NCBI RefSeq assembly: GCF_021206925.1
Contig: NZ_JAJPRF010000001.1
Coordinates: 372,001-436,000, forward strand
Length of the DNA stretch: 64,000 nucleotides
Reading direction: 5' to 3'
Source: Rhodoflexus caldus
Lineage (GTDB): Bacteria > Bacteroidota > Bacteroidia > Cytophagales > Thermoflexibacteraceae
The notes beneath the pieces were generated by a model. The model made no database searches, had not been told where the DNA came from, and was given only the letters and a program-made list of their open reading frames with translations. The position numbers and the translations under genes were made by a program. This document shows, piece after piece, positions 1 to 6,222 of this stretch (positions are counted from its first letter, which is position 1; the number at the start of each line of letters is the position of its first letter).

Positions 1-362
1 TCTTCGTGGTGTACTTTTTCCAGCAAGGCGGTTTCTAATGCGTGCGAAAACGGCCCATGCCCGATGTCGTGCAGCAGGATAGCTGCCAGTGCGGCTTCGT
101 ATTCTGCATCCCAGATGTAGTGCCCTTTGGCGCGGAGGTTGTCTAAGGCAAGTGTCATCAGGTGCATAGCGCCCAGTGCATGATGGAAGCGGGTATGAAT
201 GGCGCCGGGATAGACCTGTTCGGTCAGCCCTAATTGTTTGATACGGCGCAGGCGCTGAAACCACGGATGGTTGATTAAGTCAAATACCAACCTGTTGGGG
301 ATGGTAATAAACCCGTGTACAGGGTCGTTGATGATGGTTTTGCGGCGTAGTTGTGCTGTCAT
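1..362 (-). CDS. HD-domain phosphohydrolase (dGTPase/SAMHD1-like), C-terminus outside window
   Basis: The N-terminal 120 codons are visible; the gene runs off the left edge. The protein opens with INDPVHGFI, followed by FQRLRRIKQLG, a TRFHHALGAMHL stretch (His60 and His61) and LLHDIGHGPFSH (His98-Asp99), the metal-binding signature of HD hydrolases related to dGTP triphosphohydrolases and SAMHD1. Its substrate cannot be read from sequence; a nucleotide or phosphate ester is likely. The ATG overlaps the stop of pspA in an ATGA junction, so translation is probably coupled and this is the last visible gene of the leftward tamB-J-pspA operon. In many Bacteroidota an HD protein of this type sits next to lpxD, which may lie just outside the window (inference). 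Confidence 0.88.
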   Translation of the reverse strand, partial: MTAQLRRKTIINDPVHGFITIPNRLVFDLINHPWFQRLRRIKQLGLTEQVYPGAIHTRFHHALGAMHLMTLALDNLRAKGHYIWDAEYEAALAAILLHDIGHGPFSHALETALLEKVHHE

Positions 363-1171
363 TGACCGTCTTTATCGTCTTTGAGGCGGGCTTTCAGTTC
401 TGCCAGTTCGTTGGCGAAGGGTGCATTTGCATCCGGTTCGGCCTGTGGGTTGAGCGGGCGCTCGGGCGTAGCCTGTACCTGCGATTTGAGCCTTTGGAGG
501 TCGTTATGTACAGAGCCTTTGCTGTCTAAGCCCAAAATGCGGTCAATTTCGGCATCCAGGGAGGTTTGGCTGTTGGACAACTGATGGTAGGCATCTGCCA
601 TGGCTTCCTGCTCGGTTACTTTTTCTTTGAGGTTGTCTAACAAGGCAAGCGTACCTTGTGTGTCGGTGCGGGAGAGGCGCTCTTGCAGCGAGCGTGTTGC
701 CTGACTTACCTGTGCCCGTGCTTTGAGTGTTTTTACTTCACCTTCCCACTGGTCTATCTGCATTTTGAGCTGCATGGTCTGCTTCTCCAATTGCTTAACC
801 ATTTGCTCGTAGGTTTGCAGCCCTTTTTCGCCTGCCTGCACCCGACGCATGATTTCGTCTTTCTTCATCAGCGCTTGGGTTGCCAACCGGTCGGCTTCGG
901 CTTCTGTTATCAGGCCGTCGCGGGCTTTTTCCAGCAAAAGAATGGCTTTGCGCTCATATTCGTTGGCAACGCGCTTTTGGGCATCGCTTTCATGTTTGGC
1001 GCGGATGTAAATAGCTTTTACTTCTGCAAGGCTTTTCAGGCTTTCGCTCAGGTCGCCTTTCAGGTCGCGTATATTTTGCTCTGCGAGCAGGATGGGGTCT
1101 TCTGCCTGTTCAACTTTTTTCCCTACAAGGGCTTTTATCACGCGGATGATGCGGGCTAACAGTTCATTCAT
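359..1171 (-). CDS. pspA: PspA/IM30 (Vipp1) family membrane-stress protein
   Basis: The 270-residue protein has the PspA plan: an N-terminal amphipathic helix (residues 1-18), the AEDP motif near residues 23-26, then a long Lys/Glu-rich coiled coil to about residue 215 and a short polar tail. PspA/Vipp1 proteins are ESCRT-III-like; they assemble on the inner face of the cytoplasmic membrane and stabilise it under stress. The length is slightly above E. coli PspA (about 222). It overlaps both neighbours by ATGA (the J-protein upstream, the HD hydrolase downstream), which indicates tight co-translation. No PspF, PspB or PspC gene is nearby, so regulation must differ from the enterobacterial system. 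Family assignment is secure; the precise role in this organism is inferred. Confidence 0.93.
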   Translation of the reverse strand: MNELLARIIRVIKALVGKKVEQAEDPILLAEQNIRDLKGDLSESLKSLAEVKAIYIRAKHESDAQKRVANEYERKAILLLEKARDGLITEAEADRLATQALMKKDEIMRRVQAGEKGLQTYEQMVKQLEKQTMQLKMQIDQWEGEVKTLKARAQVSQATRSLQERLSRTDTQGTLALLDNLKEKVTEQEAMADAYHQLSNSQTSLDAEIDRILGLDSKGSVHNDLQRLKSQVQATPERPLNPQAEPDANAPFANELAELKARLKDDKDGQ

Positions 1172-1542
1172 TTGCCAAATTTTTTCTCGAAGTAGCTGTA
1201 TGCAATATTAATGCGTTGTGTGATTTGTATGGCAGTTTTTTGTTTGTCCGGTTCGTTAGGGAAGCGGTCGGGGTGATATTTTTTTACCATTAGTTTGTAG
1301 GCAGCCTTAATTTGCTCAAAAGTAGCCCCGGGTTGTACTTCCAGCGCCTGATAGTAGCCCAATTCTTCGGCAGAGTAGGCAGGTGGCGGAGGGGTTTGCT
1401 CATAAGCAGGTTCGGCGGCCGCTTTCCGCATTTGTTCTTGGTATTGTCTGTACAGTTCGCGCTCCAGCGAGTCCATCTGCGGCTCTTGCGACAGGGCATC
1501 TCCTATATTGGCGCGAATGATTTTAAAAATGCGGTCAAACAT
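1168..1542 (-). CDS. J-domain protein with PspA-like N-terminal helix
   Basis: A 124-residue protein in three parts. Residues 1-20 (MFDRIFKIIRANIGDALSQE) form an amphipathic segment resembling the membrane-binding first helix of PspA/Vipp1, including the ANI element. Residues 21-58 are a charged then Pro/Tyr-rich linker. Residues 61-124 are a J domain with the HPD tripeptide at 90-92, which stimulates Hsp70 (DnaK) ATPase. There is no G/F region, zinc finger or client-binding domain, so this is a class C J-protein. Its stop overlaps the pspA start by ATGA. The simplest reading is a dedicated Hsp70 recruiter for PspA assemblies on the membrane, similar in logic to the chloroplast CDJ2/HSP70/VIPP1 system; that role is inference. 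The J domain is certain, the PspA-like helix likely. Confidence 0.87.
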   Translation of the reverse strand: MFDRIFKIIRANIGDALSQEPQMDSLERELYRQYQEQMRKAAAEPAYEQTPPPPAYSAEELGYYQALEVQPGATFEQIKAAYKLMVKKYHPDRFPNEPDKQKTAIQITQRINIAYSYFEKKFGK

Positions 1543-1581: not shown

Positions 1582-4500
1582 TTACTGAATCTCCTCCTCA
1601 TCTGTCGGAATGTATATCCGGCTGTCGCGGTAAGGGATAACAGATTTATCTTTCTGTTTGGATTTACGACGTTTCTTTCCAAAAAGTTCCGATACGTGGT
1701 TGAAACTTCGGGTGTACATCATGCTTGCGCCTGTGGTGGCGTTTGCACCCAGCAGTGCAGCATTGAACGTATTGGAAATATTGCGGCGATACATTTTCAT
1801 GCGCACCCTGCCGTCTTGTGTGAGCAGGTATTCTACCGTCCAGTCGCCGGCGATGCTGCTGATGTTGGCCTGATTTTGCACGTTGGTAAAACTGCCGTCG
1901 CGGGTGATGCGCATCCGACCGTTCAGGAAGCTGTACGATAATCGCAATTGCATGGTATTCAGTGCATTGGCATCAAATCCGTTGAGGTCTATGTCCACCT
2001 CCAAGTTGTCATCTACTTGCGACATCCACGCGCTTAGTTGGTTGGTAATCAGTTCGCTGAGGCTGTTGCCCGCCGACTGCCCAATGCCTTCAAAGGCATT
2101 TTCGGGCAATAGTTTCCGCAACATTAACAGGCTGAATACCTGCTTTTGGAGTTCCTGCTCATCGCCTGCCAGCCTTGCCTTAAATGCGGCGATATAGGTT
2201 TCTAATGAAATAGGAACGCCACCGGCAACGATAGTGCGCGGATAGTCAAAAAATACGACATCGTATTTGATGAGGGGTTTCAGCAATTCGCCTGTCAGGA
2301 ACAAATCTACCCGCACGGGATAGCGACGTTTCAGCTCGGGGCGGTTCAGCGTGGCACTGTCTAACTGTGCACCCGATAGAATGGGAGCAAGCGCTACTTT
2401 TTGGTCGTAGGAAGCAGTGATGTTCATTTTACCCTTAAACGGGTCGCCGTTCCATGCAATACTGCTGCCCTGATTGATGTCAAAAGACTTATTGAACAGG
2501 TTTTGGAAAGTGAATGTGTAAGACCCCTTCACAATTTCCACGTCGCCAAACATGGTGAAGTCACCTTTGGTATCTAAGTCCATCTTCAACTTGCCTCGTG
2601 CATTGCCGCGTATAATGTCGCCTGCTTTGCGGTCAAGGATAATTTCCATGTAGGCATCGGGGGTAATGTCCAAATTGAGGGTAATTACCAATTTGGACAA
2701 ATCCAGCGCGCGTTGGGTTTGCAGTTCGGCCACTACGGTATCTTGTGTTGCCGTGTCGGGTTTTAGCGATACAAAGCGGATGAAGTTTTTTTCCTCGGCG
2801 CTTGCATAGCCGTCTAAGGGCATAAAAATGCGCGTTCCCCGTTCACTGGTTGCATTTACGGTAATTTTCAGGTTTTCGGGCGGCCCGAAAATTTCCATTC
2901 TGCCCGTTCCGATGGCTGTTCCGTAGTATAGCGCATCTTCGGTCTGTTGGGTGTCCAATACTTTAAAGCGACGAAAATCGCTTGTTACGTCTATGATAAA
3001 ATTCGTAAAGCCGTAGTGGTAAACACCGCCGTCTACAAATGCTACGTTTTGTTCGTCATCGCGCAGGCGCAGTCGCTTTACGGCAATGCGGTCGTCATCA
3101 AACAGGATTCTGTCATCAAAAAAATAGGTAGTGTTCAGGTAATTAACCTTAAATCGGCCGCCCGTAACAAATACCTCTCCCGAAATCTGTGGTGCATCTG
3201 CCTGCCCGTACACGCGTAGTTTGCCTTCTGCTCTGCCGCCAAATTGGGAGGCAATTTCCGAAAGGAATGATTCCAATACGTTGATTTCGGTTTGTTTCAG
3301 GTCAATATTCAAGTCCAGTTCATTGTCGGACTGCTTGTAGGTGCCGTTGAGCAACAAAACTTCGCGGCTGTCGCGCAGTATCCGCGATTCCATGGCAAGC
3401 GATTGTGCCTCCTGATTCCACTTTACAAAGTTGCGGATTTCGCCCAAGAGGAATCCTTCCATTTTAACGTTGTGCGCAAATACAAATCCGTTGGCCTGAA
3501 TTTGATGGTAGAGGTCTTTCAAAAACACTTTGCCATCGGCTTCGCCCTCTATTTTTTTGCCGACAAAGTTGCTGAGCAGTTCTATGCCTATGCGCCTGAT
3601 TTCTACTTCCAGAGTAGTTTCCGGGTCTTCCGAAATGCCACCTTTTACGCTGATAAAGCGCTGGCCGTCAGAAAAGTAAAAATCCTTAACGGCTATTTCG
3701 CGCCCCTGAATGGTAACGGTTGCCGTGTCGGTATTTTCCCATTTGCGGTTGCTGAGTATGGCAAAAGACGGGTGAAACGCTGCCATGTAGCGTTTTTCGG
3801 GAAGGAAGCGGAAATCGCCGCTGATAGCGCCGTGGTCATCGGAATGGGCAGCCTTTGCCGATAGCGTATAGGCTATTTTGTCGCGCAGCCATTCGGCATC
3901 TGTCCACAAATTTTGCAACAGTGTATCTGTTTGTCCGCGCTCGGCCGTTTGGTTAAGGTAGGCGGCCTGTATGTTCAGCTTGGCGTTGATTTGGTTAGCG
4001 TCCGCAACTTTTACCGTTTGGTAGGCTGCGGCTATTTTCTTTAAAAAGTAGCTGCCGTAGCGCAAGGTGTCGGTAGAAAGCAAAACATCAAAATCTTTGG
4101 TTTCGCCGCTGCGAAATTGACCTTTCAGTTCTGTGTTGCGGGCAATGTAAAAATCAGGTACGAAAATTTGTATAAACGGGCTCAGATTTTTAACGCGAAT
4201 CAGGTAATCTACCGCATAAGGCGTTTCAACAATCGGCTTGCGGGCTTTGAGTTTCTTTGCCAGTTTTTCGCTGTAATATTTTTCTATTACCTCGCGGTCG
4301 TTGCCGATGTAGAGCATGTATTCATCTATCAGTTTGCTCAGGTCATCAATGGTGGTCGAGGGTCTAAAATTACCCTCCGACTCGAGGTCTATCAGGTCGG
4401 AGCGGATGTAGAAAGTGCGCATTGCGCCATTGCGTTCCGAGTGGAAGTTGAGCGTATCAAAAAGAATGTCCTTTTTGTCGTAGGCAAAGTAGAAACTGTC

Positions 4501-6222
4501 GAGCCTGATATCACCCGTGAGGTTGTCTAAGGTAAGGCCTTTGAAATTGCAGTCTATACCGGCGCGAGTAACGGAGGGCTTGTCGGTAAAGTTGAGTTTT
4601 TCTAAATCTGCTTTTTCCAATGAGGCTTTCAGGCGAATTACACTGTCTTTCAGATTCACCTCTCCCGAGCCGTCAAAAGTAAAGTTGGGGTCATTTACTT
4701 TCAGATAACCTTCGGCAATGCCTTTTTTGAGGAAAACATCGGTTTGAATGTTTTTGTAGTTGTAACCGCGAAGCCCCAGCCGACCGATTCGTCCTGCAAT
4801 GTCGGTTTCCATTTCGTCAATGGAAAAACCTTTCCCTTTGATGCTCACATCCGCATCTATCAGCCCCAGCAGAGAAACCTCCGCCACCTGCCCCAAATGG
4901 AAGCCTTCCGTGATAATCTGCCCGCTATATGACTTTTGGTCTAATTTCAGGTTAATATCGGGTTTAATAATACCCAAGGCAGTTTCAAACTGACCGCGTG
5001 CCACAAAATCGTTTACATAGCCAACAAATTGCCCGTTGAAGCGCACATCCCCGAATTTTTGCACCGTAGCAAAGTTTTCTTCCGACAGAAACGGCTTTAC
5101 GTCGTTCATATCCAGCCGCGATTGCCGGAACTGAAACTGCATCAGGGTTTGGTCGGTTTCGGGCAGTCCGTCAAAAGAAAGGTTGCCGTTGATATTGGTG
5201 TTCTGTCCGAAATACAGGCGCATATTGCGCACGTTCAGGCGGCTGACATGTCCGTCAATGCTGCCGCTGATATTGGCGCTGATGTCCCAACTTTTCAGTG
5301 AAGGGGCAAAATGTGCGATATCGTCCGTATGCAATGTAGTAGAGTCCAGCTCGGCATTGATTCGCACCCGATTGTTAAAGTCGTCCATTGCATCGGGGGT
5401 GTCGTAGGTAAGCGATATACGGCGGCGCAAATAACTTTTCCCGATGCGCATATCCAAGTCATCAAAGAAAATACCCTTGTCGCAATAGAGAAAAGAGGTA
5501 TTGAAGCGGTGAATAGGCCAGTCCAAAGCCAATTCATGAGCCGATAAGTCTTTGATTTGCAACAGAATAGAGTCTTGCACGCTGACAAAATCGCGCACTT
5601 CGCCGTTGATTTTGTCTAAGACAAAGTGGTAATAATCAAACTCGTCTTTGCCTATGCCGGCATCTTTTTGCGGGCGGTTATAGCCAAAAGTGCAGTTGTT
5701 CAAAACAGCTCTTTCAATAATAAACTTGGCCGTAGAAGGCGTTGTATCGGGCTTGCCGCTGCTGAAAGCATCAATCAATTCGTTGATATTCAGTTCGCCG
5801 TCTTTGCCGTCCGAAATCAGATGGAAGGCTACGCTGTCTAATCGGGCGCGGTTCAATACAATGTCTTTGCCTTCTATCAGTGCCATTAAGTCGTAGTCCA
5901 CTCCTAACTCGGAGGCTGCAATCATTACAGCACCGGCACGGTCTTTCACAAGCACGCCGCGCAGTACCACATTGTCTAACCAACGGATAGCCAAGCGATT
6001 GATGCGCATTTCAAAACCTGTCATATCGCTCAGGTAGCGCGTAGCATGGCCACCCAGCCATGTTTGCACAGTGGGGAACTGCAAACCCAGCAAAAGCAGC
6101 AATACCAAACTGACCAATGTAAAAAAAGCACTTACCGTGCCTCTCAATACACGGCGCAACAGGCTTTCTCTCGGTGTTTCGGGTACTGCCGACTCGGGCA
6201 ATATGTCTTTATTGACCTCCAT
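1582..6222 (-). CDS. tamB: TamB/AsmA-like translocation and assembly module protein (DUF490)
   Basis: A 1546-residue protein. A signal anchor at about residues 31-52 (TVSAFFTLVSLVLLLLLGLQ) is followed by a very long repetitive beta-rich region, as in AsmA-like proteins that form a hydrophobic groove across the periplasm. The C-terminal roughly 400 residues match the TamB domain (repeated INAxASY and GDVEIVKGSYTF-like elements near the end). TamB-family proteins connect inner and outer membrane and carry phospholipids or assist outer-membrane protein assembly. The length is typical for Bacteroidota. The next gene in the leftward operon starts 39 bases after the stop. The C-terminal tail is strongly basic (GKKRRKSKQKDKS) before a short acidic end. 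TamA/Omp85 is not adjacent. Confidence 0.92.
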   Translation of the reverse strand: MEVNKDILPESAVPETPRESLLRRVLRGTVSAFFTLVSLVLLLLLGLQFPTVQTWLGGHATRYLSDMTGFEMRINRLAIRWLDNVVLRGVLVKDRAGAVMIAASELGVDYDLMALIEGKDIVLNRARLDSVAFHLISDGKDGELNINELIDAFSSGKPDTTPSTAKFIIERAVLNNCTFGYNRPQKDAGIGKDEFDYYHFVLDKINGEVRDFVSVQDSILLQIKDLSAHELALDWPIHRFNTSFLYCDKGIFFDDLDMRIGKSYLRRRISLTYDTPDAMDDFNNRVRINAELDSTTLHTDDIAHFAPSLKSWDISANISGSIDGHVSRLNVRNMRLYFGQNTNINGNLSFDGLPETDQTLMQFQFRQSRLDMNDVKPFLSEENFATVQKFGDVRFNGQFVGYVNDFVARGQFETALGIIKPDINLKLDQKSYSGQIITEGFHLGQVAEVSLLGLIDADVSIKGKGFSIDEMETDIAGRIGRLGLRGYNYKNIQTDVFLKKGIAEGYLKVNDPNFTFDGSGEVNLKDSVIRLKASLEKADLEKLNFTDKPSVTRAGIDCNFKGLTLDNLTGDIRLDSFYFAYDKKDILFDTLNFHSERNGAMRTFYIRSDLIDLESEGNFRPSTTIDDLSKLIDEYMLYIGNDREVIEKYYSEKLAKKLKARKPIVETPYAVDYLIRVKNLSPFIQIFVPDFYIARNTELKGQFRSGETKDFDVLLSTDTLRYGSYFLKKIAAAYQTVKVADANQINAKLNIQAAYLNQTAERGQTDTLLQNLWTDAEWLRDKIAYTLSAKAAHSDDHGAISGDFRFLPEKRYMAAFHPSFAILSNRKWENTDTATVTIQGREIAVKDFYFSDGQRFISVKGGISEDPETTLEVEIRRIGIELLSNFVGKKIEGEADGKVFLKDLYHQIQANGFVFAHNVKMEGFLLGEIRNFVKWNQEAQSLAMESRILRDSREVLLLNGTYKQSDNELDLNIDLKQTEINVLESFLSEIASQFGGRAEGKLRVYGQADAPQISGEVFVTGGRFKVNYLNTTYFFDDRILFDDDRIAVKRLRLRDDEQNVAFVDGGVYHYGFTNFIIDVTSDFRRFKVLDTQQTEDALYYGTAIGTGRMEIFGPPENLKITVNATSERGTRIFMPLDGYASAEEKNFIRFVSLKPDTATQDTVVAELQTQRALDLSKLVITLNLDITPDAYMEIILDRKAGDIIRGNARGKLKMDLDTKGDFTMFGDVEIVKGSYTFTFQNLFNKSFDINQGSSIAWNGDPFKGKMNITASYDQKVALAPILSGAQLDSATLNRPELKRRYPVRVDLFLTGELLKPLIKYDVVFFDYPRTIVAGGVPISLETYIAAFKARLAGDEQELQKQVFSLLMLRKLLPENAFEGIGQSAGNSLSELITNQLSAWMSQVDDNLEVDIDLNGFDANALNTMQLRLSYSFLNGRMRITRDGSFTNVQNQANISSIAGDWTVEYLLTQDGRVRMKMYRRNISNTFNAALLGANATTGASMMYTRSFNHVSELFGKKRRKSKQKDKSVIPYRDSRIYIPTDEEEIQ

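What the first reader, a model, noticed from the sequence alone, without database searches (positions are those of the whole stretch)
1168..1542. J-domain protein that begins with a PspA-type amphipathic helix
Residues 1-20 read as an amphipathic membrane helix like the first helix of PspA/Vipp1, including the ANI element, while the C-terminal half is a J domain with HPD at 90-92. This would place Hsp70 recruitment on the same membrane patches as PspA and recalls CDJ2/HSP70/VIPP1 in chloroplasts.
Basis: partly seen in the sequence, partly recalled or inferred. Interest (0 to 1): 0.55.

Follow-up and report, generated by a model that had tools for sequence, protein, structure and literature searches.

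The report
Chaperone helper with PspA membrane helix
A small bacterial co-chaperone carries at its front end a look-alike of the membrane-binding helix of the stress protein PspA, its gene often sits beside the PspA gene, and it may be the missing partner that lets the Hsp70 chaperone take PspA coats apart.

Summary
Confirmed, and better founded than claimed. Window 1168-1542 (minus strand) encodes 124 aa: PspA/Vipp1-type helix (residues 1-20), variable linker, C-terminal J domain (HPD 90-92). Its stop codon overlaps the start of a PspA gene (359-1171) by 4 nt. Against an alpha0 profile built from PspA/Vipp1 of other phyla it scores 24.3 bits; the best of 4,417 background N-termini scores 11.3. 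The family's N-terminal profile aligns to PspA alpha0 at hhalign probability 97.6; 0 of 200 hydrophobicity-preserving column permutations reach that score. The single sequence alone is not significant genome-wide (E 0.78). In two genome samples 36 of 38 and 26 of 27 genomes with the protein also have PspA, against 118 of 357 and 7 of 32 without it. Gene orders include J-PspA, J-CesT/Tir-PspA, PspA-PspC-J and J-rhodanese-sigma54 AAA+. Most likely it is a Psp-system co-chaperone that docks on membranes as PspA does and brings DnaK to remodel PspA polymers, as CDJ2/HSP70B do for VIPP1. Membrane binding, PspA contact and disassembly are inferred. Two Psp surveys name no J protein in their main text.

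The parts
1168..1542 (-). alpha0-J protein (124 aa): PspA-type N-terminal helix, linker, C-terminal J domain
   Evidence: ORF; Pfam DnaJ 3.4e-11; 27 of 59 genomes in the relatives search, its own included, have the same layout
1483..1542 (-). alpha0-type amphipathic helix, residues 1-20, MFDRIFKIIRANIGDALSQE
   Evidence: 24.3 bits against a PspA/Vipp1 alpha0 profile, background maximum 11.3 of 4,417; hhalign prob 97.6 for the family
1372..1482 (-). variable linker, residues 21-57, with a predicted helix 23-41
   Evidence: 16% mean pairwise identity against 35% for residues 1-14 and 38% for the J domain over 36 sequences; model
1180..1371 (-). J domain, residues 58-121; long helix III, no helix IV in the model
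   Evidence: Pfam profile positions 2-51 of 63; helices; Foldseek lists J domains at prob 1.00, best E 0.02
1267..1275 (-). HPD motif, residues 90-92
   Evidence: HPD in 35 of 36 aligned sequences, HQD in one
359..1171 (-). PspA/IM30 protein (270 aa); its start codon overlaps the J stop codon (ATGA, 1168-1171)
   Evidence: Pfam PspA_IM30 4e-33; model matches Vipp1 structures in PDB, best E 2.3e-5; the same -4 overlap in L009, L010, L011

Best explanation
The gene encodes a dedicated co-chaperone of the Psp envelope-stress system. Its N-terminal helix is of the PspA/Vipp1 alpha0 type and inserts into stressed, negatively charged inner membrane next to, or among, the alpha0 helices of PspA; the flexible linker lets the C-terminal J domain reach out and hand DnaK (Hsp70) onto neighbouring PspA subunits, so that ATP hydrolysis pulls the PspA/ESCRT-III coat apart, or keeps it remodelling, and recycles monomers. 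This is the job that the AAA+ ATPase Vps4 does for eukaryotic ESCRT-III, auxilin plus Hsc70 for clathrin, and CDJ2 plus HSP70B for chloroplast VIPP1. Shown here: J domain with HPD, PspA-type helix, conservation of both ends with a variable linker, gene coupling and co-occurrence with PspA. Inferred: membrane binding, contact with PspA, DnaK stimulation, and disassembly rather than assembly.
For: J domain and HPD. Alpha0 type: a profile from 16 PspA/Vipp1 of other phyla gives 24.3 bits for the window protein; 49 of 56 family members reach 10 bits against 5 of 4,417 background, 43 of 56 reach 12 against 0; the best ATG of 40 ordinary J-domain ORFs of 230 aa or more gives 8.7. hhalign 97.6%, E 3.6e-12 for this one comparison; 0 of 200 random and 0 of 200 hydrophobicity-preserving column permutations reach the score. 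Linkage: PspA follows on the same strand in 18 of 27 loci of the relatives, at -4 to +235 nt; J-CesT/Tir-PspA in 10 of 26 loci of the phylum sample and in Nitrospirales L054/L273; PspA-DUF4178/PspC-J in L129. Co-occurrence: 36 of 38 versus 118 of 357 genomes, with strong PspA (E<1e-30) 36 of 38 versus 21 of 357; relatives 26 of 27 versus 7 of 32 (from 10, 27, 53, 56). Precedent: HSP70B/CDJ2/CGE1 assemble and disassemble VIPP1, and E. coli DnaK can stand in for HSP70 (PMC6882379, PMC10602608, passages); PspA alpha0 binds membrane and its R6, R9, K12 meet the head groups (PMC12358876, passages).
Against: No experiment and no complex model. The single sequence is not significant against the genome (E 0.78). 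In 9 of 27 loci of the relatives and 15 of 26 loci of the phylum sample PspA is not in the fetched flank, and in many of the latter the gene sits with a rhodanese and a sigma54 activator. 21 genomes with a strong PspA show no such J protein, so PspA can work without it, though in the phylum-wide searches at most 10 (J) or 7 (PspA) candidates per genome were scored, so misses are possible. G028, G335 and G432 have the J protein and no PspA detected. Some members fit alpha0 weakly (L024 5.9, L145 6.0 bits). L129 reads HQD instead of HPD. Fisher p-values ignore shared ancestry.
Confidence: 0.6

Rival explanations
1. The helix is only a generic inner-membrane anchor that happens to resemble PspA alpha0. 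The protein is a membrane-tethered J protein, like a short DjlA, that serves general membrane-protein quality control and not PspA.
For: Amphipathicity alone is modest; many loci lack a PspA neighbour and pair with rhodanese and sigma54 activator instead; the best NCBIfam hit of the L256 relative is DjlA over residues 32-136, 61 bits against a cut-off of 162.
Against: Residue identity, not just the hydrophobic pattern, carries the match: class-preserving shuffles lower the family mean from 16.9 to 9.5 bits, and none of 200 pattern-preserving column permutations reaches the real hhalign score. Co-occurrence with PspA also where the genes are not adjacent.
Confidence: 0.2
2. The J protein works in assembly, not disassembly: it holds DnaK on newly made PspA, whose gene follows in the same direction, and keeps monomers soluble or loads them on membrane.
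For: Gene order J then PspA with a 4-nt overlap in four of four same-genus genomes; the chloroplast system is reported to catalyse both assembly and disassembly; a CesT/Tir-like gene lies between the two in other lineages.
Against: No direct evidence; by inference a membrane-binding helix is more use on a formed coat than on a nascent chain.
Confidence: 0.25
3. It is a regulator: it uses alpha0 to sense membrane stress and, through DnaK, controls a sigma54 activator or PspA-dependent signalling rather than the PspA polymer itself.
For: J-rhodanese-sigma54 AAA+ gene order in 13 of 20 loci without adjacent PspA; the two activators read in full lack an N-terminal regulatory domain and carry HTH_8, a PspF-like layout (recalled).
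Against: The two activators tested are not PspF by NCBIfam: TIGR02974 at 276 and 288 bits against a cut-off of 443.55, with other families scoring higher; a sigma54-like site stands within 250 nt upstream of pspA in 1 of 30 loci, 1 of the 13 genomes with that operon. The window's own locus shows no such activator beside the J gene.
Confidence: 0.1
4. The resemblance is chance.
For: A single short helix gives E 0.78 in the genome.
Against: Kept in 56 sequences from several lineages while the linker next to it is not.
Confidence: 0.02

Closest known systems
CDJ2 with HSP70B/CGE1 acting on VIPP1 (Chlamydomonas chloroplast)
   Same: A J protein that directs Hsp70 to a PspA-family ESCRT-III polymer (passages in PMC10602608, PMC6882379, PMC13051332)
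   Different: CDJ2 acts in the chloroplast; whether it carries an alpha0-type helix was not tested. Here the J protein has a PspA-type helix and its gene overlaps pspA.
Auxilin / Hsc70 clathrin uncoating
   Same: J domain at the C-terminal end plus an N-terminal targeting part that delivers Hsp70 to a membrane coat (layout recalled); the analogy to IM30 is drawn in PMC6882379 (passage); auxilin J domains are among the Foldseek matches
   Different: No room for clathrin-binding or PTEN-like parts in 124 aa; the proposed target is an ESCRT-III-type coat
DjlA and other membrane-anchored bacterial J proteins
   Same: N-terminal membrane part, C-terminal J domain (recalled); weak NCBIfam DjlA matches of the window protein and of L256
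   Different: PspA-like helix instead of a transmembrane segment; linked to PspA
CesT/Tir-PspA dyad of Ravi et al. 2024 (PMC11237479, section read)
   Same: A CesT_Tir_1 gene (PF22550, E 1.8e-52 in L121) upstream of pspA; it lies between J and pspA in 10 of 26 phylum-sample loci and in Nitrospirales L054/L273
   Different: The paper's main text has 0 occurrences of DnaJ, J-domain, J domain, Hsp40, Hsp70 or DnaK; its supplements were not read
PspA / Vipp1 (IM30)
   Same: Helix alpha0, residues 1-20
   Different: No PspA_IM30 domain; not a PspA

Membership tests
J-domain proteins (Hsp40) | DnaJ domain over curated cut-off with HPD between helices II and III | tested here: met
   Pfam DnaJ 43.5 bits against 27.8; HPD 90-92 between helices 75-88 and 98-121; fold
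J-domain proteins (Hsp40) | Stimulates DnaK ATPase | not testable with these tools
   needs biochemistry
PspA/IM30 (ESCRT-III superfamily) | PspA_IM30 domain with alpha1-alpha5 | tested here: not met
   No PF04012 hit at E<=1; only about residues 1-20 align to the alpha0 profile
PspA/Vipp1 alpha0-type helix | Sequence profile of alpha0 including Arg6 | tested here: met
   Profile scores, hhalign and permutation controls
PspA/Vipp1 alpha0-type helix | Single-sequence match significant genome-wide | tested here: not met
   E 0.78, one of four hits
PspA/Vipp1 alpha0-type helix | Binds anionic membranes as a helix | not testable with these tools
   needs liposome assay; predicted helix 3-16 at pLDDT about 50
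Psp system component | Conserved gene neighbourhood or co-occurrence with pspA | tested here: met
   PspA follows in 18 of 27 loci; 36 of 38 and 26 of 27 co-occur
CDJ2-type VIPP1 co-chaperone | Physical interaction with the PspA-family protein and ATP-dependent (dis)assembly with Hsp70 | not testable with these tools
   no complex prediction or assay available
CDJ2-type VIPP1 co-chaperone | Sequence orthology with CDJ2 | not tested
   CDJ2 sequence was not fetched; the 2005 paper is not held
PspF (for the linked sigma54 activators) | NCBIfam TIGR02974 over cut-off | tested here: not met
   276 and 288 bits against 443.55 for the two tested, L256 and L253

The most novel reading that the evidence does not exclude
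This is a widespread bacterial counterpart of Vps4/auxilin: a dedicated ESCRT-III uncoating factor that enters PspA coats by carrying a PspA-type alpha0 helix and uses the general Hsp70, instead of a private AAA+ ATPase, as motor. With CesT/Tir it would form a conserved J-CesT-PspA module in the window's phylum and in Nitrospirota, with a rhodanese/sigma54-linked branch elsewhere.
Probability: 0.42. Interest if true: 0.82.

Novelty: new variant of a known kind. Interest (0 to 1): 0.68.

Why it matters
How PspA and Vipp1 polymers are taken apart in bacteria is an open question in print: Liu et al. 2021 say it is unclear whether PspF plays the Vps4 part for PspA or whether an equivalent ATPase assists Vipp1 (PMC8281802, passage), and Ravi et al. 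2024 say it is unknown how PspA homologues without an associated AAA ATPase regulate assembly (PMC11237479, passage). A conserved J protein that shares PspA's membrane helix and often its gene neighbourhood gives a direct, testable answer, and links the chloroplast CDJ2/HSP70B/VIPP1 system to bacteria.

Tried and rejected
One pattern scan of viral contigs with the window protein confirmed no relative. TamB (1582-6222), upstream of the J gene, was tested as a possible conserved partner and dropped: of 15 longer loci (L038-L052) only the same-genus L038 shows it by tblastn. The idea that the J-rhodanese-sigma54 operon is a PspF/PspE-type psp regulator was tested and not supported: no PspF assignment for the two activators tested, and a sigma54-like site within 250 nt of pspA in 1 of 30 loci against 0.29 expected (promoters further upstream would be missed). 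Amphipathicity as sole argument was dropped. The alpha0 HMM alone is too short to be significant genome-wide. In the hhalign control, rotating the columns by 3, 4, 7, 11 or 14 still gave scores of 20 to 34 against 40.5, because local alignment keeps contiguous blocks; reversal gave 8.2. No hetero-oligomer prediction was possible (single chains only).

Rows dropped before counts: of loci L118-L146 (29), L133, L141 and L143 were left out because I saw no alpha0 start; L051 and L052 (long variants like L024) and L038-L043, L045, L047-L049 (same as or very near genomes already used) were left out of the 56; A4 uses 36 of the 56. G284 was left out of the 38 because its frame holds no ATG and no alpha0 start. 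Start codons of family members were chosen by eye; the background was scored over every ATG, which works against the claim. Of the 38 phylum-sample genomes, the N-terminus was read in 32 and judged from profile coordinates only in 6 (G327, G421, G085, G199, G331, G285). Place lists are cut ('more matches are not listed').

Full report
WHAT IS THERE. The ORF at 1168-1542 on the minus strand gives a 124-residue protein, MFDRIFKIIRANIGDALSQEPQ...HPDRF...FGK. Pfam finds a DnaJ domain at residues 63-116 (E 3.4e-11), HPD lies at 90-92, and the AlphaFold model (mean pLDDT 73; about 85-91 over the J domain, about 50 at the N-terminus) has helices 3-16, 23-41, 58-66, 75-88 and 98-121. Foldseek against PDB lists J domains at probability 1.00, though with E-values of only 0.02 and above. 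Pfam covers profile positions 2-51 of 63, and the model has no helix IV. The gene ends in an ATGA overlap with a PspA gene (359-1171; PspA_IM30 E 4e-33) whose model matches Vipp1 structures (E 2.3e-5). The genome is most likely Cytophagales: the same-genus genome G001 and the record of L038 (Bernardetiaceae bacterium SKYG34) share a 354,323-base contig.

IS THE HELIX PSPA-LIKE BEYOND CHANCE. I built a position-specific profile of alpha0 from 16 PspA/Vipp1 proteins of other phyla (loci, two PDB chains). The window protein scores 24.3 bits. Of 4,417 ATG-started 26-mers from 1,106 other ORFs the best scores 11.3; 49 of 56 family members reach 10 bits (background 5 of 4,417), 43 reach 12 (background 0). 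The best ATG of any of 40 ordinary J-domain ORFs of 230 aa or more gives 8.7. Shuffling residues within chemical classes lowers the family mean from 16.9 to 9.5, so the match is more than an amphipathic pattern. hhalign of 35 J N-termini against 13 alpha0 sequences gives probability 97.6 and E 3.6e-12 over 23 columns, an E-value for a single comparison; 0 of 200 random and 0 of 200 hydrophobicity-preserving column permutations reach its score (maxima 14.5 and 21.9 against 40.5), while rotations that leave blocks intact give 20 to 34. R4, present in 34 of 36, aligns with invariant R6 of PspA, one of the residues reported to meet lipid head groups (PMC12358876, passages). Results against: Pfam PspA_IM30 misses the single sequence; a 30-column HMM ranks it last of four hits in the whole genome at E 0.78; the hydrophobic moment alone is unremarkable; some members fit weakly (5.9 and 6.0 bits). 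Homology by descent cannot be told from convergence on an 18-residue helix; the resemblance of kind is what is supported.

A CONSERVED FAMILY. Of 59 genomes of the relatives search (own included), 55 have some J-domain hit and 27 have this architecture. In a sample of 395 genomes of the phylum 38 have it, 37 of them outside the window's class. It also occurs in Nitrospirota (L054/L273, read with a GTG start; one clear case among the 15 loci fetched from 148 genomes) and in the phylum of a Spirochaetota genome (clear alpha0 in L288, L292, L294, L295, weaker in L296, of 15 loci fetched from 149 genomes). Across 36 sequences mean pairwise identity is 35% in residues 1-14, 16% in the linker and 38% in the J domain: both ends are kept, the middle drifts.

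TIES TO PSPA. PspA follows on the same strand in 18 of 27 loci of the relatives at -4 to +235 nt. In 10 of 26 loci of the phylum sample the order is J-CesT_Tir_1-PspA (Pfam run on two of the CesT genes), and the same triad stands in Nitrospirales L054/L273. L129 has PspA, then a DUF4178/PspC protein, then J. In the window's genome the CesT-PspA dyad sits on another contig with a second PspA whose alpha0 is canonical (L001; 23.2 bits), while the J gene is paired with a PspA whose own alpha0 matches poorly (6.1 bits). Co-occurrence: 36 of 38 genomes with the J protein have PspA against 118 of 357 without; for strong PspA hits 36 of 38 against 21 of 357; among relatives 26 of 27 against 7 of 32 (Fisher 3.7e-14, 8.6e-34, 2.3e-9, none corrected for ancestry). 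Exceptions: G335, G432 and G028. In the phylum-wide searches only up to 10 (J) or 7 (PspA) candidates per genome were scored, so absence there is soft; in the relatives all candidates were scored.

A SECOND NEIGHBOURHOOD. Of 20 phylum-sample loci with no PspA within about 5 kb, 16 have a rhodanese gene directly next to J and 13 a sigma54 AAA+ activator after it. The two activators read in full lack an N-terminal regulatory domain and end in HTH_8, and the rhodanese I read (L130) has a hydrophobic N-terminal stretch. It is tempting to see PspE and PspF (rhodanese and activator of the E. coli psp system; PspE recalled), but NCBIfam does not assign PspF to the two tested and pspA in these genomes shows no sigma54 site beyond one case (1 of 30 loci, 1 of the 13 genomes with the operon). 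I leave it unexplained.

MECHANISM. The simplest reading is a targeting factor: alpha0 puts the protein on the membranes PspA acts on, possibly inside the PspA coat, and the J domain brings DnaK to PspA. The chloroplast precedent is direct: HSP70B/CDJ2/CGE1 assemble and disassemble VIPP1 with ATP, and E. coli DnaK can replace the algal HSP70 (passages in PMC10602608 and PMC6882379; the original papers of 2005 and 2007 were not read). PMC6882379 itself draws the auxilin/clathrin parallel and names membrane-associated chaperones as candidates. Not shown here: lipid binding, PspA binding, DnaK stimulation, direction of the reaction.

NOVELTY. Two surveys of the Psp system (PMC11237479, passages and section 19; PMC9239133, passages) have 0 occurrences of DnaJ, J-domain, J domain, Hsp40, Hsp70 or DnaK in their main text (supplements not read), although the first describes the CesT/Tir-PspA dyad in detail. 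Full-text searches for PspA with J domain and amphipathic helix, PspA with DnaJ and Bacteroidetes, and 'J domain-containing protein' with 'phage shock protein A' found no paper. One search (three of: phage shock protein, PspA, DnaJ, J domain) found 56, of which I saw the listing of 20, none with a title on a bacterial PspA-J pair; one search found 8 (listing), one search found 5 (listing; three of them on PspA/Vipp1), one search found 18, of which 10 were listed. Subscription papers are mostly not held, so this is not proof of novelty. I file it as a new variant of a known kind: an Hsp70-targeting J protein for a PspA-family coat, with a new way of targeting.

Noticed in passing
L253-L256, L258-L262, L264, L268-L270 (loci), around position 5000: J-rhodanese-sigma54 AAA+ gene order in 13 of 20 loci; L257, L263 and L272 have the rhodanese only. 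Function of this operon unknown.
   Followed up: partly
window 359-1171: The PspA beside the J gene fits the alpha0 profile poorly (6.1 bits) compared with the second PspA of the genome (L001, 23.2 bits), as if the canonical helix were carried by the J protein instead.
   Followed up: partly
L129:1492-1854: A relative in a PspA-DUF4178/PspC-J locus has HQD in place of HPD, so it may be unable to stimulate Hsp70.
   Followed up: no
L024, L051, L052: Long variants with an extra stretch between a weakly PspA-like helix (5.9 bits for L024) and the J domain.
   Followed up: no
window 1582-6222: TamB-like protein (Pfam TamB 2.7e-47) directly upstream of the J gene on the same strand; of 15 longer loci only the same-genus L038 keeps it.
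   Followed up: yes
L053, L064, L290, L291: Short C-terminal J proteins from Spirochaetota genomes with a different N-terminal helix (for example MANLFDHLNGIFESLDKLFDNIF) that does not fit the PspA profile (2.4 to 4.4 bits).
   Followed up: no
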